From an uncultured Candidatus Nemicrothrix sp. (lineage in GTDB: Bacteria; Actinomycetota; Acidimicrobiia; Acidimicrobiales; MedAcidi-G1): a stretch of DNA of 64,000 nt. Position numbers and translations under genes: made by a program. The notes under the pieces are model-generated. The model made no database searches, was not told the DNA's origin, and was given only the letters and a program-made list of their open reading frames with translations. This document shows, piece after piece, positions 51,703 through 62,858 of this stretch. Each line of letters begins with the position of its first letter. Positions within the stretch are counted from its first letter, which is position 1. The stretch covers positions 1 through 64,000 of the forward strand of contig CAJXKL010000003.1 of assembly GCA_913055915.1 (NCBI GenBank), in the 5' to 3' direction.

Positions 51703-52086
51703 ATGCCCCGACACATCCCGCGGGTCTCCCCGGCAGTCACCGGCCTCATCGCCATGGGTGGAGCCGCTGGAGCCAGCACAAGGTGGGCTGCCCTCACCCT
51801 CGGGCCGTCGACGACGTTTCCCTGGTCGGTGCTCCTCGTGAACCTGGCCGGCTGCGCCATTCTCGGGGTGCTTGTCGGGCGGGGAGTACACCACAACGCC
51901 CGACTCCTCATCGGCACGGGCTTCTGCGGAGGCCTGACGACCTTTTCCACGTTCACCGTCGAGGCTGCACAGCTCATGCGGACCGACCACCTGGGGATAG
52001 CCGCCGCCTATCTGGCCGCATCCGTTGTCGGTGGTCTCGTCTGCTTCGACCGGGCCCGGGCCCTGACCGCCGAGGCACCCACGTGA
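51703..52086 (+). CDS. crcB: Fluoride channel subunit FluC/CrcB (first of a pair)
   Basis: A 127-residue four-span membrane protein. Motifs: GGAAGASTRW, LLVNLAGCAILGVLVG (Asn of the pore) and GTGFCGGLTTFSTFTVEA (Phe box and sodium-site turn). Fluc channels expel fluoride. When two crcB genes are adjacent the products form heterodimers. The gene ends in a GTGA overlap with the second copy. No fluoride riboswitch is evident before it. Confidence 0.92.
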   Translation: MPRHIPRVSPAVTGLIAMGGAAGASTRWAALTLGPSTTFPWSVLLVNLAGCAILGVLVGRGVHHNARLLIGTGFCGGLTTFSTFTVEAAQLMRTDHLGIAAAYLAASVVGGLVCFDRARALTAEAPT

Positions 52087-52415
52087 GCAACGTCGTCCTC
52101 TTCGCCCTGGTCGCCGCCGCCGCTACAGCGCTCCGGATTGTTGCCGTCCACATCTGGCCGGGTGCAGAACGCGGCACCCTGCTCGTGAACGTGGCGGGTT
52201 CGTTCGCCCTCGGCCTGATGGCGGGGCTCACAGGACCGGCCGTGACGATCATCGGCGCCGGCGGCCTGGGTGCCCTGACCACGTTCTCGGCATTCGTAGC
52301 CGACACCTCAGCCGTTGCTGACGAACGGGGTGTCAGGTCCAGCGCCGCCTACGTGTCGCTGACCCTTGTCGGGGGAACGCTGGCAGCACTAGCCGGCATC
52401 GCCCTGGCCGGATGA
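52083..52415 (+). CDS. crcB: Fluoride channel subunit FluC/CrcB (second of a pair)
   Basis: A 110-residue partner: LRIVAVHIWPGAERGTLLVN, VAGSFALGLMAGLTG and GAGGLGALTTFSAFVADT keep the Asn and the GxLTTFS Phe motif. It is shorter than the first copy at the N-terminus. Start is GTG 52083 overlapping the first crcB stop. Paired genes commonly encode opposite-topology subunits. It converges on serS with four bases between. Confidence 0.9.
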   Translation: MSNVVLFALVAAAATALRIVAVHIWPGAERGTLLVNVAGSFALGLMAGLTGPAVTIIGAGGLGALTTFSAFVADTSAVADERGVRSSAAYVSLTLVGGTLAALAGIALAG

Positions 52416-53730: not shown

Positions 53731-54615
53731 CTACTCGACCGATTCTGGCACCTGAGGTGGATCGACAGACGCGGGGCGGCCGTCGGCCAGACGACCGACC
53801 GCCGGCCGCAGGCGTTGATCTTGACGGTTCTGCTCCCGGGTAAAGGAGAAGAACTTCACGACGATGATTCCCCAGATGTAGAAACCACCAAGCAACTTCA
53901 TGATCAGACCGGCTGTCTGCTGGTCGGAACGCACGCTGACCCCCCACAGTTCGAAGCCGTCGTCATAGGTCGGGTACACGACACCGTCGGCAAAGGTCAA
54001 CCATGCAGCCGGAACGGTTGGAATGATCGACATCAGGAACAGGTACAGCATCTGTCCGGGCGGCGACAGCCGCAGTTCCGGTAGCGGTGCCACCACCGGC
54101 ATCCACATGGCCAGCGCAGAGGCGAACAGCACGACGTGAACTCCGTAGTGGAAGGCCCCGAACTCGGCAGACCAGTTCACGACACTGCTCCAGTGGGTCA
54201 GGGCGACCAGTCCGTTGAAGATGAGGCCGGCCACAACAGGATGGGTCAACCTTCGCAGTATCCGGGCTCCAAACCCGTCTTCCAGGATCAGCAACCTGGC
54301 CAACCAGCCCGGCATCGCCAACAGGAACAGGGGCGGCACGATGAACGTGATCGCCAGGTGCTGGAACATATGGACCGAATAGAGGTGGTCCTCGGCAATG
54401 TCGTGCACGGGCCAGTCGGCCGAGACCAGCAGCAGGATGGTTGCGGCGACAAAGGCCCGACGCTGGAACGGTGTCGTCACCGGCATGCCGACCGGCACCA
54501 CCTTCGGGCCGATAACCCGGGCCGCCCACCAGCCCAGGACAACCACAGCCACCACCAGGAACCAGACCTCGGGATGGGCCTGCCAGTCCCACGGTCCGAC
54601 TACGGCGACGATCAC
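53731..54615 (-). CDS. ctaG: Cytochrome c oxidase assembly protein, caa3 CtaG family
   Basis: A 294-residue membrane protein with about seven spans. VSADWPVHDIAEDHLYSVHM then FQHLAITFIVPPLFLLAMPG and the later WSAEFGAFHYGVHVVLFASA show the conserved His residues of the Bacillus-type caa3_CtaG family, thought to help insert copper into the oxidase. C-terminal tail is charged. Last gene of the cta operon. Confidence 0.92.
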   Translation of the reverse strand: MIVAVVGPWDWQAHPEVWFLVVAVVVLGWWAARVIGPKVVPVGMPVTTPFQRRAFVAATILLLVSADWPVHDIAEDHLYSVHMFQHLAITFIVPPLFLLAMPGWLARLLILEDGFGARILRRLTHPVVAGLIFNGLVALTHWSSVVNWSAEFGAFHYGVHVVLFASALAMWMPVVAPLPELRLSPPGQMLYLFLMSIIPTVPAAWLTFADGVVYPTYDDGFELWGVSVRSDQQTAGLIMKLLGGFYIWGIIVVKFFSFTREQNRQDQRLRPAVGRLADGRPASVDPPQVPESVE

Positions 54616-54687: not shown

Positions 54688-55023
54688 TCAGCCCTTGGAC
54701 CAGAACTCGAAGGCACTGAGGGCAATGACATATACGGCAACAGCCAGAATCAGACCTCCGACGAAAAACTTCGTGAAGAGGCTGTTGTCGAACCGCAGAT
54801 GCATGAACCAGGCAGCGACAATGAAGAACTTGGCAACCATCATGACCATGAGGGTTGGTATCAGGGCGGGGCCGATGTCCACGTAGTAGGTCGCCACCTC
54901 CAGAGCAGTCAGGACCCCGAGGATGAGGGCGATCTGGAAGTACTTCGAGTCCGACGGGTGGTCGTGATCGTCGACGTTGGAGTCGTCCACGGCCACGTCG
55001 GTCGGTACGGTATCGGTGCTCAT
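54688..55023 (-). CDS. Cytochrome c oxidase subunit IV family protein
   Basis: A 111-residue protein with three spans after an acidic, His-containing N-terminal tail. ALILGVLTALEVATYYVDIG, TLMVMMVAKFFIVAAWFMHL and RFDNSLFTKFFVGGLILAVA match the prokaryotic COX4 family, a small accessory subunit. It starts 15 bases after the ctaE stop. CtaD also carries its own subunit-IV-like tail, so two such elements exist in this operon. Confidence 0.9.
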   Translation of the reverse strand: MSTDTVPTDVAVDDSNVDDHDHPSDSKYFQIALILGVLTALEVATYYVDIGPALIPTLMVMMVAKFFIVAAWFMHLRFDNSLFTKFFVGGLILAVAVYVIALSAFEFWSKG

Positions 55024-55038: not shown

Positions 55039-55638
55039 TCAGCTGGTGGGTGAGGGCACCAGGTAGATGACAGAAAAGATGAAGATCCACACGATGTCCA
55101 CGAAGTGCCAGTACAGGCCGATGATCTCCACTGTCTCGGAGTGCTCCTTTCGGAGCGAACCGCGAAGCGACGAGATGAACATGGACATCAGCATCAGGAT
55201 GCCGATGCTGACGTGCACACCGTGGAAGCCGGTAAGGGTGAAGAACGCCGACGAAAATGGGCTGGTCGTGTAGCCGAGGCCCTCACGGAAGAAGGTGGTG
55301 AACTCGTAGACCTGGCCACCGATGAACAACGAGCCGAGCAGGGCGGTCGTCAGCAACCAGATGCGGTTGTTGCGGAGGTCGCCACGCTTGATGGCCGACA
55401 GGGCCAGGACCATCGTGAGCGAACTCATGAGCAGCACGAAGGAACTCACCGAGGTGAACGGGATGTCGAAGATGTCGCCCGGTGCCGGACCGGTTGCAAA
55501 CCGACCCCGGTACACGAGGTAGGTCGATATCAGCGCACCAAAGAGCAGGCACTCGGAACCGAGGAACACCCACATCGCCAGCTTGTTGTGGGACATGCCG
55601 GTGGTGGTTGCGTGGTCGGTCGCGGCAGCCTCAGACAA
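55039..55638 (-). CDS. ctaE: Cytochrome c oxidase subunit III
   Basis: A 199-residue protein with five spans. KLAMWVFLGSECLLFGALIS, TVFSTGFHGVH-like TLTGFHGVHVSIGILMLMSM and YWHFVDIVWIFIFSVIYLVP are hallmark subunit III segments, including the Glu that binds lipid near the proton-uptake side. Its start overlaps the ctaD stop by eight bases. Confidence 0.96.
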   Translation of the reverse strand: MSEAAATDHATTTGMSHNKLAMWVFLGSECLLFGALISTYLVYRGRFATGPAPGDIFDIPFTSVSSFVLLMSSLTMVLALSAIKRGDLRNNRIWLLTTALLGSLFIGGQVYEFTTFFREGLGYTTSPFSSAFFTLTGFHGVHVSIGILMLMSMFISSLRGSLRKEHSETVEIIGLYWHFVDIVWIFIFSVIYLVPSPTS

Positions 55639-57577
55639 CGGGGGCCTCCTCTGTCGTGTCGGCTACCTCGGAAACGTCGCCATGGGCGGCGTCAGGGTCG
55701 TCCACCGGCTCAAAGACCCAGGCATAGATGGCCATCACCACCAGCAGGCCACCGGGCACGGTCAGCCACAGGTTGAAGATGAGACCAAGCGCTATGAACG
55801 GCAGGCCGGCAGCGAACACGATCGGCCAGAAGGAGGGGGAAGGAAGGTGCACACCCACGGCTGAACCGTCCTGACAGACCTCCTCGGCCGAGGCGACACG
55901 CACGACACGGCCGTTCTCGTCGGTGCCGTACTTGCGGTGCCAGAACTCGTCGAGGCTCTCGACCACCGGTATCTCGTCGAAGTCGTGGACAGGGGTCGGG
56001 TTTGGTGTCAGCCACTCGAGGCTGCGGGCATCCCACGGATCTGGCCCACAGGGAGGCTGGCCCTTTGCCTTCATGGCGGACCTGATCACGTTGACCACGA
56101 AAATGGCAATGCTTAGGGCGATCAGGAATGAACCGATGGTCGAAACCATGTTCCAGAACTCGAAGCCGAAGCCGGGGCTGTAGCTGTCGATGCGCCGGGC
56201 CATGCCCTGCAGGCCCAACACGTGCATCGGCCCGAAGGTCAGGTTGAACCCGACCAGCATCACCCAGAAGTTCACCTTGCCGATGAGGTCACTGAGCTGG
56301 TGGCCGAACACCTTCGGCCACCAGAAGTAGAGGCCGGCGAAGAGGCCGAAGATGATTCCACCGAAGATGACGTAGTGGAAGTGGGCGACGATGTAGTAGG
56401 TGTCGGTCTGCTGGGTGTCAGCCGGCGAGATAGCGTGCGTGACGCCCGAGAGACCACCGATGGTGAACATGGAGACGACACCCACGGCGAACAGCATCGG
56501 TGCCGAGAACTTGATACGACCGCCCCACATGGTGGCCATCCAGTTCAGGATCTTCACGCCGGTCGGTACGGCGATAAACATCGTCGAGAGCGAGAACGCA
56601 GCCACCGAGATCGGACCGATACCGGACACGAACATGTGGTGAGCCCACACGCCCCAGCCCATGAAGCCGATGGCGATTCCCGAGAACACCATGAACGGGT
56701 ATCCGAAGATGGGTTTGCGGGAGAACGTCGGGATCACCTCTGAGATGATCCCGAACGAAGGCAGGATGAGGATGTAGACCTCGGGGTGGCCGAAGATCCA
56801 GAACAGGTGCTGCCAGAGCAGGGCGTCACCACCCACGGACGGGTCAAAGAACCTGGCACCGAACAGGCGGCTGAACGCCAGCAGAAACAGGGCGACGGCT
56901 ATGACGGGCATGGCGAACACCAGCAGCAACTGGGTCACAAGTATCATCCAGGTGAACACGGGCATGCGGAACAGGGTCATTCCCGGTGCACGCATGTTGA
57001 GGATCGTCACCGTCAGGTTGATCGACGACACCAACGAGGCGATGCCTGTCATCTGGAGGCCAAGGGCGTAGAAGTCCATTCCGGGACTCGGCGAGAACAC
57101 GATGCCCGTGTTGGGGGCGTAGCCGAACCATCCGCCGTCGGGCGCACCACCCAGCACCCACGACAGGTTCAAGACGATGCCGCCAGCGAGAAATACCCAG
57201 AAGCTGAGGGCATTAAGACGCGGAAGGGCCACGTCTCTGGCACCGATCTGCAGTGGTATCAGGTAGTTGGCGAACGCTGCAGACAGCGGCATTGCAGCCA
57301 GGAAGATCATGGTCACGCCGTGCATCGTGAAGACCTGGTTGTACATGTCGGCACCGAGAACCGTGCCGTTGGGCGTGGCCAACTGCAGGCGGATCAGGAG
57401 TGCCTCGATACCTCCGACGACGAAGAAGAAGAGGGCGGCGACCCCGTAGAGGATGCCGATCTTCTTGTGGTCGACGGTGGTGATCCAGTCGCGCCAGCCG
57501 TTGCCGCCCCTGGGGCGCGTGTAGACGCCCAGCGGCTGGCCCACCACGTCTTCGACGGTGGTCGTTGCGGTCATCAC
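55631..57577 (-). CDS. ctaD: Cytochrome c oxidase subunit I (aa3 type) with C-terminal subunit IV-like extension
   Basis: A 648-residue catalytic subunit. All ligands are present: H86 and H401 (low-spin haem a), H264, H313 and H314 (CuB), H399 (haem a3) and the cross-linked Y268 in GHPEVY. About residues 560-648 form an extra tail with two spans (FWPIVFAAGLPFIALGLIFN, VPGGLLVVMAIYAWVFEPVD), like actinobacterial subunit IV. Start is GTG 57577 or ATG 57574, both touching the ctaC stop. It reduces oxygen to water and pumps protons. Confidence 0.97.
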   Translation of the reverse strand: MMTATTTVEDVVGQPLGVYTRPRGGNGWRDWITTVDHKKIGILYGVAALFFFVVGGIEALLIRLQLATPNGTVLGADMYNQVFTMHGVTMIFLAAMPLSAAFANYLIPLQIGARDVALPRLNALSFWVFLAGGIVLNLSWVLGGAPDGGWFGYAPNTGIVFSPSPGMDFYALGLQMTGIASLVSSINLTVTILNMRAPGMTLFRMPVFTWMILVTQLLLVFAMPVIAVALFLLAFSRLFGARFFDPSVGGDALLWQHLFWIFGHPEVYILILPSFGIISEVIPTFSRKPIFGYPFMVFSGIAIGFMGWGVWAHHMFVSGIGPISVAAFSLSTMFIAVPTGVKILNWMATMWGGRIKFSAPMLFAVGVVSMFTIGGLSGVTHAISPADTQQTDTYYIVAHFHYVIFGGIIFGLFAGLYFWWPKVFGHQLSDLIGKVNFWVMLVGFNLTFGPMHVLGLQGMARRIDSYSPGFGFEFWNMVSTIGSFLIALSIAIFVVNVIRSAMKAKGQPPCGPDPWDARSLEWLTPNPTPVHDFDEIPVVESLDEFWHRKYGTDENGRVVRVASAEEVCQDGSAVGVHLPSPSFWPIVFAAGLPFIALGLIFNLWLTVPGGLLVVMAIYAWVFEPVDDPDAAHGDVSEVADTTEEAPVV

Positions 57578-58767
57578 TCGACCTCCGTAGCGGCGATTAC
57601 GTCAAGCGACGGTGCCCGACCGAGGGTGGTCAGGTATGCCACCACGTCGTCGATCTGACCTTCGTCGAGGCCCATGGCCGGCATGCCCCGGCGACCCTCG
57701 GCGTAGGCGGGCTTCTCAGCCGGCGAATTGCGCAGCCACGCCTCGAGTTGGGTCCGGTCCAGGCTTCCGTCTGGCTCGTACATGTTGAAGATCCCGCCCG
57801 CATAGGTGGTGCGGCTCATCAGGTGGGTCAGGTTGGGAGCAGCATTGGCAACCAGGTCGGCACCATCGTTGTCGTTGAAGCCATCGATCACATGGCAACG
57901 GGCGCACTGCGACTGGTATATCTCCATACCCCGCTGGGCGGCGGCCGCCTGGGGCTCAGCAGCAGGTTGTAATTGTTCTGCAACCCACGCTGCGAAGTCG
58001 TCGAGGGTGACAGCCACGACCTGCATACGCATCCGCGAATGCGACAGACCGCAGAATTCAGTGCACTGGCCGAAGTAGACACCCGGCTCGTCGGCTTCGA
58101 GTTTCCATGGGTGAACCCGACCGGGTGCAGCGTCCTTCTTGCCGTTCAACGCCGGAATCCAGAAACTGTGGATCACGTCGCGGCTGGTAACCGACAACTC
58201 GATCTCCTCGCCGGCGGGAATCACCATCTGGTTGGCGGTGACAATGTCGGCCGGCGGCAGGTGCCTTGCATCGGTCAGGTCGACGCCGTCAAGGCCGTTC
58301 AGGTAGTAACGGAACTCCCACCACCACTGCTGGCCCACAACTACGACCTCTGGTTCCCACTGGGTGGCGGTTCCGCCGACCTCGATGGTTACCGCGTTTG
58401 CCTCGGTCTCGTTCAGGCCCCTCAGGGTGATGAGCGTGAACACCGAGATAACCACGAGGATCAGAGTCGGGACGATGGTCCAGGCCAACTCCAGGCGGGT
58501 GTCGCCGTGGAACTGGTGCGGGAACTCCTCGTCGTCGTGGTCGTCGCGGAACCTCCACCAGATGATGAAGGTGCCCGCAAACACGAAGATGAAGACGACA
58601 ACAGCGACGTAGAACACCGGGTCAAACAGGTTGTCGATGCTTCGGGCGCTGGGGCCCTGCGGGTTGAGGGTGTCCAACTCAGCGTCGGCTGCACAACCGG
58701 TCAGGAATGTCAGGACTCCGAGACCTACTGCTGTAGGACCCCGGGTGCGGAGGTACTTCCGGATCAC
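57574..58767 (-). CDS. ctaC: Cytochrome c oxidase subunit II with fused cytochrome c domain (caa3 type)
   Basis: A 397-residue lipoprotein-like subunit. Signal plus GVLTFLTGCAADAELDTL (lipobox Cys), two spans, then a CuA domain: FWIPALNGKKDAAPGRVHPW with its His and YFGQCTEFCGLSHSRMRM (Cys, Glu, Cys, His, Met ligands). A C-terminal cytochrome c follows, with SQCARCHVIDGFND and distal Met in GRRGMPAMGLDEG. So electrons can enter through its own haem c. Start is GTG 58767, overlapping the preceding membrane-protein gene. Confidence 0.96.
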   Translation of the reverse strand: MIRKYLRTRGPTAVGLGVLTFLTGCAADAELDTLNPQGPSARSIDNLFDPVFYVAVVVFIFVFAGTFIIWWRFRDDHDDEEFPHQFHGDTRLELAWTIVPTLILVVISVFTLITLRGLNETEANAVTIEVGGTATQWEPEVVVVGQQWWWEFRYYLNGLDGVDLTDARHLPPADIVTANQMVIPAGEEIELSVTSRDVIHSFWIPALNGKKDAAPGRVHPWKLEADEPGVYFGQCTEFCGLSHSRMRMQVVAVTLDDFAAWVAEQLQPAAEPQAAAAQRGMEIYQSQCARCHVIDGFNDNDGADLVANAAPNLTHLMSRTTYAGGIFNMYEPDGSLDRTQLEAWLRNSPAEKPAYAEGRRGMPAMGLDEGQIDDVVAYLTTLGRAPSLDVIAATEVE

Positions 58768-59549
58768 CCGTCCACCTCCACGTGGCCACCACCAGAACCC
58801 CCACCCTGCTGGTGGAACTCCCGCTCTCCGGTTGCTGCTGCCACGATTCCCGCCACGAGCACGGCAACACAGCTCAAGATGAGGGTCGTGCTCACGAGAC
58901 GCCGCGAGATGTTCGGCCGGCGGCTGAAAACGAAGGCCGCTCCGAACACACAGACACCGACAGCCCCGGCGACCAGCACCGCCCCGTTCACCGATGAAGC
59001 GAGCAGAACCCTCGACATCGCCAGGACCAGTACGCCAATACCGGCAAGCGCCAGAATCGGGATTTCGACCGGGCGGAGCAGGCGTTCACGCAGTTCGCTG
59101 TTCACCTCAGGGTCACCGGTAGCCCGTTCAGACCAGTTGGTCATGGTCCACTCCAGGCTGACCGCAACCAGTATGAGCAGGCCGACCACGAACAGCGCTG
59201 AACTGACAACGAGGCCGACCACGAGGGTGGCTACTCCGAGGGCGCCCAGTACCGGCCAGATGGAACTGCCTACCTGTGTCTGGGCGGGTGGCGGCGTGTC
59301 CACGCCGAGCACCTCGGCCACTGACTCTGAGTCGGCATCGCGGAAGGCAACGGCGACAATCCCCAGCAGGCCGAACACTGCTGCTGCAACCACGAACAGG
59401 ACATAGGTGACGTGGTTTCCCACGCCACCCTTCCATCCGAGGCTGATCGGCCCGGTTTCGGTCGCACCCGACGTGTACCCGGCGAACACCGCAGCTGAAA
59501 ACGCTGCAACGAAGAAGCCGAACCAGAGCTTGAATCCCGTGGTGAGCAT
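58764..59549 (-). CDS. Oxidase-operon membrane protein of unknown function
   Basis: A 261-residue protein with about seven hydrophobic spans (first: LWFGFFVAAFSAAVFAGYTS) and a C-terminal tail with GEREFHQQGGGSGGGHVEVD, rich in Gly and His. It sits between the subunit III paralogue and ctaC, overlapping ctaC by four bases. I see no metal-ligand motif in the spans. A role in assembly of the oxidase or in the unusual module next to it is inferred from position only. Confidence 0.72.
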   Translation of the reverse strand: MLTTGFKLWFGFFVAAFSAAVFAGYTSGATETGPISLGWKGGVGNHVTYVLFVVAAAVFGLLGIVAVAFRDADSESVAEVLGVDTPPPAQTQVGSSIWPVLGALGVATLVVGLVVSSALFVVGLLILVAVSLEWTMTNWSERATGDPEVNSELRERLLRPVEIPILALAGIGVLVLAMSRVLLASSVNGAVLVAGAVGVCVFGAAFVFSRRPNISRRLVSTTLILSCVAVLVAGIVAAATGEREFHQQGGGSGGGHVEVDG

Positions 59550-59569: not shown

Positions 59570-60154
59570 CTACTTGGTGATGTAGATGCCGAGCCAGATG
59601 ACCATGTAGACCGCTACAGCTGCATACCAGTAGAGGGCTGCCGCGGATACCAGATCACGGTTCCGGCTTGTGTCCTGCCCGCCCAATGCCCGCAACAGCA
59701 GGAGGCCAAGCCAGAGCACACCGACCAGGACCATTGCCATGTGGGCTCCGACGATGACGTACAGGAAGGTGGTGGCCTCACTGTGGTCGATCGGCAGGGC
59801 GATGTCGTTGAAGTAGAAGACCGTCTGGTTGAGCATCGCCACGCCCATCACGGCGGTGATGGTCATTGCAAGGTAGGCGTGGATCCGGTCGTCGTTGATG
59901 ACCGAGTACACGGCCCACATCATCGTTATCGCCGAGAGGGCCATAGTTGCCATGTTCATTCCACCCGGTGGCAAGCGGATGGCTCCCTCTGGGAACCACT
60001 CCATACCCCAGGCCATGGCGTCGGCCCGACGGGCAAAGTAGAGGGCGAACAGGCCACCGAAGAACATCAACACGCCTGACGTGGCCAGCGCCGACCCGAT
60101 CACGAGGGTTCGCGGCCTGTTGGGTACCGCCGGTGCGAAGGTCAAAGACGACAT
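59570..60154 (-). CDS. Haem-copper oxidase subunit III paralogue
   Basis: A 194-residue protein with five spans; segments LATSGVLMFFGGLFALYFAR, RADAMAWGMEWFPEGAIRLP, DHSEATTFLYVIVGAHMAMV and AALYWYAAVAVYMVIWLGIY follow the subunit III layout (compare ctaE). It replaces the HWHFVD segment by YWYAAV. Its start shares its A with the stop of the ghost subunit I gene (TGATG), so the two are coupled and probably form a complex. Confidence 0.85.
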   Translation of the reverse strand: MSSLTFAPAVPNRPRTLVIGSALATSGVLMFFGGLFALYFARRADAMAWGMEWFPEGAIRLPPGGMNMATMALSAITMMWAVYSVINDDRIHAYLAMTITAVMGVAMLNQTVFYFNDIALPIDHSEATTFLYVIVGAHMAMVLVGVLWLGLLLLRALGGQDTSRNRDLVSAAALYWYAAVAVYMVIWLGIYITK

Positions 60155-61737
60155 CAGGCACCCACCTCGACTGCTGCATCCAGAAGGGGACTCTCAGAGG
60201 TCACTTCCACGGTCTCCGTCGTCCATTCGAGCGTGTGGCCACCCCACGTGTCACCCAGAGAGCGGGCTCCCTTGAACCTGACCACACCGGTCACGAGCCA
60301 CCCGAGGGCTCCGATCAGCAGGTGTACCGACCCAACAAACGCCACCGTGTTCAGGACATTGACGCCCGAACCGGGATAACCGGCACCTGACAGGTCTCCA
60401 CCGGTGAAGTCCGCAAGGCCCATGAACCCACTGATCATGTCGGAAACGGCTACTAGCTCGACGCCAACCGCAACAGCCAGGGCACTCGCCAGGCCGAACC
60501 CCTGGGGTGCCACACGACCGACGATGAGATCACCCCACCAGAGGGTTCCCGCCATGGCCGCCAGAAGGGCGGCACCGATGGTAAAGGTGAACTGCGCTCC
60601 TGTGGTCGAGCGCTCGAGCAGGTCCAACGGGGCCACCGCCCGCAGGGCGCCCAGAACAGTCCCGGCCAGGAGGAACAGAACCGAGAGGACAGACAGGTAG
60701 AGCGGTGCCGGCATCCTGGTCCTGCGGCTACCGGCACCCCGCCACAACGTGTCAACCAGGCCGAAAAGGACCAACAGGACCAGTGGCACGACCAGGAATG
60801 CCTCGACAACGAAGATGGCTTGTTCCCTGATGGGAGTTCCAACGTCAAAGGCTGCCTGGGCATAGGCACCGAACGAGAGCACACCGAGGAGGGCCGTCAG
60901 GACCAGAAGGGCCTGATGGCTGCCGTGGCGCCTTCTGGCCGCAACAGGGACGATGTCGCCGGCAATGCCTACCAACGGCAGGGCGAAGGCGTAGACCTGT
61001 GGATGGCTGAATGCCCAGGAAAGTTGCTCCCAGATAGTGTCCTCAGCGCCGAAGGCGACCGCCGACCGGCTAGCCAAGTCTACGTAGATAAGTACCGCAT
61101 TTGCCGCAAGTACCGGCAACGTAACCAGCCAGATTGATCCGGCCACGAGAACGCTCCAGACGAACAGGGGCACCCTCGACAGGGTCATTCCAGCGGTTCG
61201 GCCCACCACGATCGTGGTGAGAATGCACACCGTGGCACAGCAGATTCCGCCGATAACCATCAGCAGTCCCAGCAGGGTCAGGGCCACGGCATCGGTGCGG
61301 CTGGTACCACCCGGCGTTCCGAGGCCACCGTCGATCAGGAAACCTGCGACGGTGATGGCCGCACCCAATGCCCACACCCAGAACCCGAAGGCCGCAGCCC
61401 TCGGGAACACAACCGACGACGCACCCACCTGCAGGGGAGCAACAGCCGTGGCGAGGCCAATGACGACGGGAACGACCGCCAGCAGGACGATGCCGACGCG
61501 GTAGGCGCTCCAGAAGCGGAACAGCGAGTCAGCGTCACCGAACACGGCCATGCCGCTGAGATCCATCCGCTCGAGGCTCACCAGAAGTCCGGCAACCAGG
61601 GATGCCACGAGGAACAGGACGCCAGAGGCAATCCAGGCTCGACCGATGCGCAGGTGGTCGGTTGTCGTCACAGCCGCCTCAAGAGCGGTCGGGACATCGT
61701 CGCCGGTCCGGGTCGTGTCCGCTGCAGTCTCAGTCAT
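60154..61737 (-). CDS. Haem-copper oxidase subunit I paralogue lacking metal-ligand histidines ('ghost' oxidase)
   Basis: A 527-residue twelve-span protein that aligns along its length with CtaD ([20 protein letters not shown] against [40 protein letters not shown] against PLQIGARDVALPRLNALSFW). The ligands are mostly lost: H86 becomes Y79, H313/H314 become Q294/A295, and H399/H401 become Q382/T384. Only H245 and Y249 of the HPxVY motif stay. It cannot bind haem a, haem a3 and CuB in the usual way. It is coupled to a subunit III paralogue and cotranscribed with a real oxidase. A structural or regulatory role is inferred. About 230 bases before it (61738-61967) hold no gene. Confidence 0.85.
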   Translation of the reverse strand: [527 protein letters not shown]

Positions 61738-61967: not shown

Positions 61968-62858
61968 TCACAACACCACATCGAGGGCGATCGCCCCAAA
62001 AAGCAGTGTCACATAGGTGATCGAAAACGAAAAAAGGCGCATTGCGGTCCGCTCGTTCGGGTTCCGCCTGACAGCCACGGCGAACACTGCGAACGCGGTC
62101 CCGAGCATCAGGGCCGACACGAGGTAGAGCACACCCATTCCCGCCACCGACCAGAACACGACCGTCAGCGCCACCATCACAGCCGCGTAGGAGAGGATCC
62201 GGTTTGAGGTGGCCCTGAGGCTGACAACCGATGGAAGCATCGGAACCCCTGCGGCCGAGTAGTCCTCGCGGTACCTGATAGCCAGGGCCCAGAAGTGGGG
62301 TGGCGTCCAGTAGAAGATCACGAGGAACAACACGACCGGTGCCCAGGCCAGCGAGTTGGTGATCGCCGACCAGCCGATGAGTACCGGGGCGGCGCCGGCG
62401 GCGCCACCAATGACGATGTTTCTCGTCGTCGACCTCTTCAACCAGAGGCTGTAGACAAACACGTAGAACAGGGTTGCCGACACCGCCAGCACAGCGCTCA
62501 GCAGGTTGACGGTCGCCACAAGCCAGGCGAAGGCGGCCACCTCGACGACAACTGCGAAGACCATGGCTGCCCGCGGGGTCATGACGCCGCGTACGAGCGG
62601 TCGCTGGCTGGTCCGTTCCATGAGGCTGTCGATGTCGCGGTCGACGACCATGTTCACTGCGTTGGCTCCACCGGCGGCAAGGGCCCCGCCCAAAACCGTG
62701 GCGATCATCAGCCATACCGACGGAACCCCGCCCTCAGCAACGAACATCGTGGGCACGGTCGTCACGAGCAGCAGTTCGACGATTCGCGGCTTGGTCAACG
62801 CCACGTAACCGACGAGGCGTGCGCGAGGGGTGAAGGAAGGTGACGCCGGCATCGGCAA
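61968..62858 (-). CDS. ctaB: Protoheme IX farnesyltransferase (haem O synthase)
   Basis: A 296-residue UbiA-family membrane enzyme that adds a farnesyl group to haem b, the first step to haem A. Motifs: ALTKPRIVELLLVTTVPTMF, NAVNMVVDRDIDSLMERTSQ (metal-binding DxxxD-type with RTSQRPLV), and YRRTT-like KRSTTRNIVIGGAAGAAPVL, plus WTPPHFWALAIRYREDY. It serves the caa3 oxidase of the same operon; no ctaA is in the window. Confidence 0.95.
   Translation of the reverse strand: MPMPASPSFTPRARLVGYVALTKPRIVELLLVTTVPTMFVAEGGVPSVWLMIATVLGGALAAGGANAVNMVVDRDIDSLMERTSQRPLVRGVMTPRAAMVFAVVVEVAAFAWLVATVNLLSAVLAVSATLFYVFVYSLWLKRSTTRNIVIGGAAGAAPVLIGWSAITNSLAWAPVVLFLVIFYWTPPHFWALAIRYREDYSAAGVPMLPSVVSLRATSNRILSYAAVMVALTVVFWSVAGMGVLYLVSALMLGTAFAVFAVAVRRNPNERTAMRLFSFSITYVTLLFGAIALDVVL

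What the first reader, a model, noticed from the sequence alone, without database searches (positions are those of the whole stretch)
60154..61737. Subunit I homologue of haem-copper oxidase that has lost five of six metal-ligand histidines
Direct alignment with CtaD from the same operon shows Tyr, Gln, Ala, Gln and Thr at the positions of the haem a, haem a3 and two CuB histidines; only the His in HPxVY remains. Yet the gene is full-length, has intact spans and is coupled to a subunit III paralogue. This looks like a conserved non-catalytic oxidase module, perhaps a scaffold, assembly platform, quinone/ion channel or regulator.
Basis: partly seen in the sequence, partly recalled or inferred. 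Interest (0 to 1): 0.78.

Follow-up and report, generated by a model that had tools for sequence, protein, structure and literature searches.

The report
Inactive twin built beside respiratory oxidase
Many bacteria of one order (Acidimicrobiales) carry, inside the gene cluster for their oxygen-consuming respiratory enzyme, a complete second copy of its membrane core that has lost the copper-site and in most species also the haem-binding residues yet is kept under strong selection, which suggests that the enzyme is built with a permanent non-catalytic partner.

Summary
The 527-aa gene is an intact COX1 homologue (29% identical to the operon's CtaD) with Tyr/His/Gln/Ala/Gln/Thr at the six metal-ligand positions. 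The D-channel Asp, pump Glu, K-channel Lys and propionate Arg pair are also gone.

It is not decay. Omega is 0.11-0.15. Orthologues occur throughout the family and widely in the order Acidimicrobiales, including an isolate, closed chromosomes and single-cell genomes. They form one clade.

First, the module has three genes: pseudo-subunit I, pseudo-subunit III and a 7-TM protein whose first half is CtaF/subunit-IV-like, in the fixed order ctaB-I'-III'-IV'-ctaC-ctaD-ctaE-ctaF-ctaG with a single subunit II. Allowing for contig ends, all 90 sampled order genomes with this caa3 oxidase have it. Second, the loss is graded: no orthologue keeps more than one CuB histidine, but early branches keep all three haem histidines or the haem-a pair. 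The window's lineage is a cofactor-free endpoint; its surviving HPxVY histidine looks re-acquired.

Best reading: a structural "ghost protomer" of the caa3 oxidase, comparable in principle to CydA/CydB. Physical association is inferred, not shown; an assembly platform is the main rival. I found no prior description.

The parts
60154..61737 (-). pseudo-subunit I (par1), 527 aa, COX1 fold, residues Y79/H245/Q294/A295/Q382/T384 at the six ligand positions
   Evidence: AF2 model pLDDT 87.7, pTM 0.92, TM 0.86 to mycobacterial CtaD
59570..60154 (-). pseudo-subunit III (par3), 194 aa, COX3 family; start overlaps the par1 stop (TGATG)
58764..59549 (-). pseudo-subunit IV (tm4), 261 aa, 7 predicted helices; N-terminal half CtaF/PF12270-like, C-terminal 3 helices unmatched
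   Evidence: (E 3.7e-4 to C. glutamicum CtaF)
57574..58767 (-). ctaC, the only subunit II of the operon, CuA motif plus cytochrome c domain (caa3 type); start overlaps the tm4 stop
55631..57577 (-). ctaD, catalytic subunit I with all six ligands; C-terminal COX4-like extension
55039..55638 (-). ctaE, catalytic-side subunit III
54688..55023 (-). ctaF-like small subunit IV (COX4_pro)
53731..54615 (-). caa3_CtaG copper assembly factor
61968..62858 (-). ctaB, haem O synthase, directly upstream of par1 in all loci read that far

Best explanation
The three genes encode a complete copy of an aa3-oxidase membrane core (I', III', IV'), without its own subunit II. It arose once, at the base of the caa3-bearing Acidimicrobiales, and became a permanent non-catalytic partner of the caa3 oxidase encoded directly downstream. 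It first lost CuB (no oxygen chemistry), then in most lineages haem a3 and haem a, while the fold, the cytoplasmic C-terminal motif and the III'/IV' partners were kept. Most likely it forms a fixed hetero-oligomer with CtaC-CtaD-CtaE-CtaF, in which it shapes and stabilises the complex, or its docking to the bc complex or cytochrome c, without carrying electrons. Shown: ligand loss, conservation, purifying selection, single origin, fixed operon with overlapping genes, co-occurrence. Inferred: physical association and the stabilising or docking role.
For: Gene order ctaB-par1-par3-tm4-ctaC-ctaD-ctaE-ctaF-ctaG is the same in the 80 named loci as far as their contigs reach and in some 35 further loci from other families, with one ctaC. 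Of 90 order genomes with this caa3 ctaD (at least 60% identity), 89 have tm4 and the exception ends at a contig edge. Neighbouring genes overlap (TGATG, GTGA). Purifying selection: par1 omega 0.11-0.15, par3 0.07-0.10, tm4 0.09-0.12, ctaD 0.06-0.07. One clade, support 100. Full COX1 fold. Partner genes III' and IV' accompany par1 wherever the contig extends. Evolutionary-rate residuals group par1-tm4-par3 (r 0.41-0.66) and link tm4 and par1 to ctaC and ctaD (0.19-0.39) but not to serS (-0.22, -0.19) (25 loci, suggestive only). No bd oxidase and no other haem-copper oxidase were found in the window's genome, so the operon holds its only detected terminal oxidase.
Against: No direct evidence of contact between the two halves. 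Features of par1 that face subunit II in catalytic enzymes look lost (GWxxYxP loop deleted), so the mode of contact is unknown. par1 evolves about three times faster than ctaD. Operon conservation alone would fit an assembly factor equally well. In two loci (L193, L194) about 5 kb of other genes lie between tm4 and ctaC.
Confidence: 0.5

Rival explanations
1. Assembly or maturation platform: the module is a transient scaffold that holds CtaC or apo-CtaD during haem A or copper insertion and leaves the finished enzyme. In early branches a bound haem might be handed over.
For: par1 is directly downstream of ctaB (haem O synthase) and the operon ends with the copper factor ctaG. In basal families a TlpA/thioredoxin-like gene (CXXC) lies between tm4 and ctaC (L192 and L208). 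Haem ligands are kept in some lineages.
Against: SURF1 is present elsewhere in the genome and CtaG in the operon, so usual factors are not missing. Haem ligands are lost in most lineages while selection continues. Retaining the III' and IV' partners suits a stable complex better.
Confidence: 0.25
2. Independent membrane function: I'-III'-IV' is a separate complex that moves an ion or small molecule, or senses a ligand such as O2 or NO through haem in the haem-bearing lineages, and is merely co-expressed with the oxidase.
For: The complete I-III-IV set could stand alone; 9 of 51 non-redundant orthologues keep the haem-a His pair and 3 all three haem His. Lineage-specific conserved residues exist (R33, R80, R270, Q294).
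Against: D and K pathway residues and the pump Glu are lost; no genome was clearly seen with the module away from a caa3 operon (apparent cases that were read resolved to contig ends or a broken frame); haem use is not conserved.
Confidence: 0.15
3. A decaying duplicate or an assembly artefact, without function.
For: Ligands and proton pathway lost; faster evolution than ctaD.
Against: Omega 0.11-0.15; no stops in the family's orthologues apart from one TGA in one draft; conserved over an order; present in an isolate (EGI L10123), closed chromosomes and single-cell genomes.
Confidence: 0.02
4. A haem-copper-type enzyme with a different chemistry, using another metal or residue set at the old active site.
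For: The cross-link Tyr is often kept and a Gln is frequent (32 of 41) at one former CuB His.
Against: No alternative conserved His/Cys/Asp/Glu cluster at the site was seen; residues there vary between families (A, S, L, M, V, R).
Confidence: 0.04

Closest known systems
Actinobacterial aa3 cytochrome c oxidase of the bcc:aa3 supercomplex (CtaD, CtaE, CtaF; e.g. PDB 9gy6, 7q21, 6adq)
   Same: Closest fold and sequence relatives of I' and IV' and among the relatives of III'; I-III-IV gene order also seen in functional operons of other orders (L214, L215)
   Different: Those are catalytic and have subunit II and all ligands; the module here has neither
caa3-type oxidase (CtaC with fused cytochrome c, CtaD, CtaE, CtaF)
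   Same: The module lies inside the operon of one; ctaC, ctaD, ctaE and ctaF of the window are ordinary members
   Different: Known caa3 operons, from general knowledge, have one subunit I; here a second, ligand-less I with its own III and IV precedes ctaC
Cytochrome bd oxidase CydA/CydB (from general knowledge)
   Same: Principle: a catalytic subunit paired with a homologous, cofactor-free partner arisen by duplication
   Different: Unrelated fold; there the pairing is proven by structures, here it is inferred
Nitric oxide reductases and other haem-copper superfamily members with altered active sites (from general knowledge)
   Same: COX1-type 12-helix fold with a changed binuclear site
   Different: Those keep haem ligands and a catalytic metal; the window protein keeps neither

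Membership tests
COX1 / haem-copper oxidase subunit I fold family (PF00115) | profile match over the curated cut-off and 12-helix fold | tested here: met
   167 bits against 34.8; AF2 model TM 0.86 to CtaD
catalytic haem-copper oxygen reductase, subunit I | three CuB His, haem a3 His, two haem a His | tested here: not met
   one of six left in the window protein; no non-redundant orthologue with two or more CuB His
catalytic haem-copper oxygen reductase, subunit I | D pathway Asp, Glu of HPEVY, K pathway Lys | tested here: not met
   S108, Q247, V323 in the window protein
NCBIfam CtaD_CoxA (TIGR02891) and cyt_aa3_Actin (NF050116) | score over the curated cut-off | tested here: not met
   213 against 671 bits; 170 against 880 bits
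caa3 oxidase complex (as a structural subunit) | co-purification or structure with CtaC/CtaD | not testable with these tools
   only operon, co-occurrence and rate covariation
COX3 family (PF00510), for par3 | profile match over the cut-off | tested here: met
   47 against 23.8 bits
actinobacterial subunit IV CtaF (PF12270), for tm4 | profile match | tested here: inconclusive
   the window protein alone does not match; 10 of 42 orthologues do, best 1.1e-5; profile to C. glutamicum CtaF E 3.7e-4; fold match weak, E 0.05

The most novel reading that the evidence does not exclude
Acidimicrobiales respire with a hetero-oligomeric haem-copper oxidase in which one protomer is catalytic and the other is a cofactor-free pseudo-oxidase of the same fold (I'-III'-IV'); living species still show the steps of its decline, with CuB lost first and the haems afterwards.
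Probability: 0.42. Interest if true: 0.82.

Novelty: new variant of a known kind. Interest (0 to 1): 0.66.

Why it matters
Subunit I of haem-copper oxidases is usually treated as inseparable from its metal centres. A whole subunit I-III-IV set that has shed them and is nonetheless kept across an order, next to the working enzyme, would be the first such case I know of in this superfamily. It offers a natural series (CuB lost, haems kept; one haem pair kept; no haem) for asking what the fold does without cofactors. It also warns annotators that COX1 matches in these abundant marine and soil bacteria count one oxidase twice.

Tried and rejected
Decay or pseudogene: rejected by omega and conservation. 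Intact-ligand orthologues: candidates with high profile scores in other orders and in the phylum (L171, L179-L181, L213-L215) proved to be ordinary catalytic CtaD, so the clade was not seen outside the order. Genomes that seemed to have tm4 without caa3, or caa3 without tm4, were partly read and mostly end at contig edges. Quinone site: the Gln at the bo3 Q101 position is conserved in all COX1, so it says nothing. tm4 fold search gave only weak matches. Literature searches found no description; one query was malformed. PMC8239418 was searched for Acidimicrobiaceae, paralogues and ligands and mentions the group only for CtaA. The promoter scan found nothing useful. The first ORF extraction ignored strand and gave false readings; it was redone. 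Helix breaks in the AF2 model near the former CuB segment were not used, as canonical helix VII ends there too.

Full report
Observation. The gene at 60154-61737 (-) is a full-length COX1 homologue of 527 aa (Pfam COX1, 167 bits, cut-off 34.8). Aligned with CtaD of the same operon (144 identical of 489 aligned), it carries Y79, H245, Q294, A295, Q382 and T384 where CtaD has H86 (haem a), H264, H313, H314 (CuB), H399 (haem a3) and H401 (haem a). Also lost are the D-pathway Asp, the Glu of HPEVY, the K-pathway Lys, the propionate Arg pair and the periplasmic GWxxYxP loop (ctaD numbers printed run 9 too high). Of 147 positions conserved in 90% or more of catalytic CtaD, 58 are still the majority residue in the paralogue family. 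The kept ones include backbone-shaping Pro, Gly, Trp and Arg residues and the C-terminal DPWxGxTLEWATxSPPPxxNF motif.

It is a functional gene. In the genus, par1 omega is 0.11-0.15 at dS 0.5-0.9, against 0.06-0.07 for ctaD and 0.09-0.12 for ctaB and ctaC; par3 is 0.07-0.10 and tm4 0.09-0.12 (rows of that table in which ctaD or ctaE was missing from the locus are not meaningful). Orthologues are found in 45 of 48 genomes of the family, with the real ctaD about 4 kb away where the contig allows. They occur widely in the order. The scan of 84,980 species returned 80 best loci, all from Acidimicrobiia or its synonyms apart from generically named bins and one probably mislabelled contig. They include an isolate (EGI L10123), single-cell genomes and closed chromosomes.

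The module has three genes. par3 (59570-60154) is a COX3 homologue. tm4 (58764-59549) had no family match, but 10 of its 42 orthologues match subunit IV CtaF (PF12270, best 1.1e-5) and the family profile hits C. glutamicum CtaF at E 3.7e-4 over its first half. The AF2 model shows seven helices. The three look derived from the CtaD-CtaE-CtaF trio of actinobacterial aa3 oxidases, in the same I-III-IV order as functional operons of other orders (L214, L215), but without a subunit II of their own.

Linkage. In the 80 named loci the order ctaB-par1-par3-tm4-ctaC-ctaD-ctaE-ctaF-ctaG holds as far as contigs reach, and again in divergent families. Of 90 order genomes with a ctaD at least 60% identical to the window's, 89 have tm4, and the exception (G072) stops at a contig edge inside ctaC. 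Of eight genomes with tm4 but no such ctaD hit, those read (G051, G088, G109, G113) show the same operon with ctaD cut off or frame-broken. par1/par3, tm4/ctaC and ctaC/ctaD overlap by one to four bases. Rate residuals over 25 loci group par1, par3 and tm4 and link them to ctaC/ctaD rather than to serS; the pairwise distances are not independent, so this is only suggestive.

Graded loss. A tree of 51 non-redundant paralogues and 29 catalytic CtaD places all paralogues in one clade (support 100). No paralogue has more than one CuB His (0 of 51 have two). Nine of 51 keep the haem-a His pair, six the haem-a3 His, three all three haem His, for example HRYAGHH in L192 and L198 and HLYALHH in L216. 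These lie mostly on the earliest branches, and the fewest changes for the haem-a pair on the tree are five. So CuB was lost on the stem and the haems later, several times. The window's family retains H245, but its nearest relatives have Gln, Ala or other residues there, so this His is best read as regained. The quick tree has long branches and open forks; the single origin is firm, the inner order is not.

Mechanism. The enzyme core cannot reduce oxygen and, in the window's lineage, cannot hold haem by the known ligands. Full fold, kept partner subunits, overlapping genes, one shared subunit II and co-occurrence with the caa3 oxidase make a structural partner the most economical reading (0.5). 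An assembly platform (0.25) is the main rival, helped by the neighbouring ctaB and ctaG and by TlpA-like genes beside ctaC in basal families. The genome also has SURF1 and a bc-type cytochrome b hit, and no bd oxidase or other haem-copper oxidase was found, so this operon encodes its only detected terminal oxidase. The assembly is about 94% complete.

Known or not. No family model describes the paralogue (best NCBIfam hits far below cut-off) and full-text searches found no account; subscription journals were not covered. The paper on the isolate EGI L10123 reports high expression of its cytochrome c oxidase genes (PMC11697166) but, in the passages read, does not discuss a second subunit I.

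Noticed in passing
L192:5537-6229, L208:6126-6713: In basal families a TlpA/thioredoxin-like protein with a CXXC motif is encoded between tm4 and ctaC; the window's lineage has none there.
   Followed up: partly
L193:6786-9583 (and the equivalent gap in L194): A metal-type ABC transporter (binding protein, ATPase, permease) lies between tm4 and ctaC in one family; a possible link to copper or zinc supply. Only L193 was read.
   Followed up: no
L182, L183; further hits in G025, G028, G030: Species of the window's genus and a sister genus carry a second, divergent haem-copper oxidase with all ligands that the window's assembly lacks.
   Followed up: partly
G000:C2:3315-3698 (L233): The cytochrome b hit of the bc complex has one in-frame TAG in the matched stretch; assembly error or frame break not checked.
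   Followed up: no
L072: A contig labelled Terriglobia (Acidobacteria) carries an operon nearly identical to the Acidimicrobiales single-cell genome L073; probably a mislabelled bin.
   Followed up: no
window 51703-52415 (+): Two adjacent ORFs look like a CrcB-type fluoride channel pair (from appearance only).
   Followed up: no
window 55631-56000 (-): The catalytic CtaD carries a fused C-terminal COX4-like stretch (PF12270, residues 566-623), so the operon holds three subunit-IV-like elements.
   Followed up: partly
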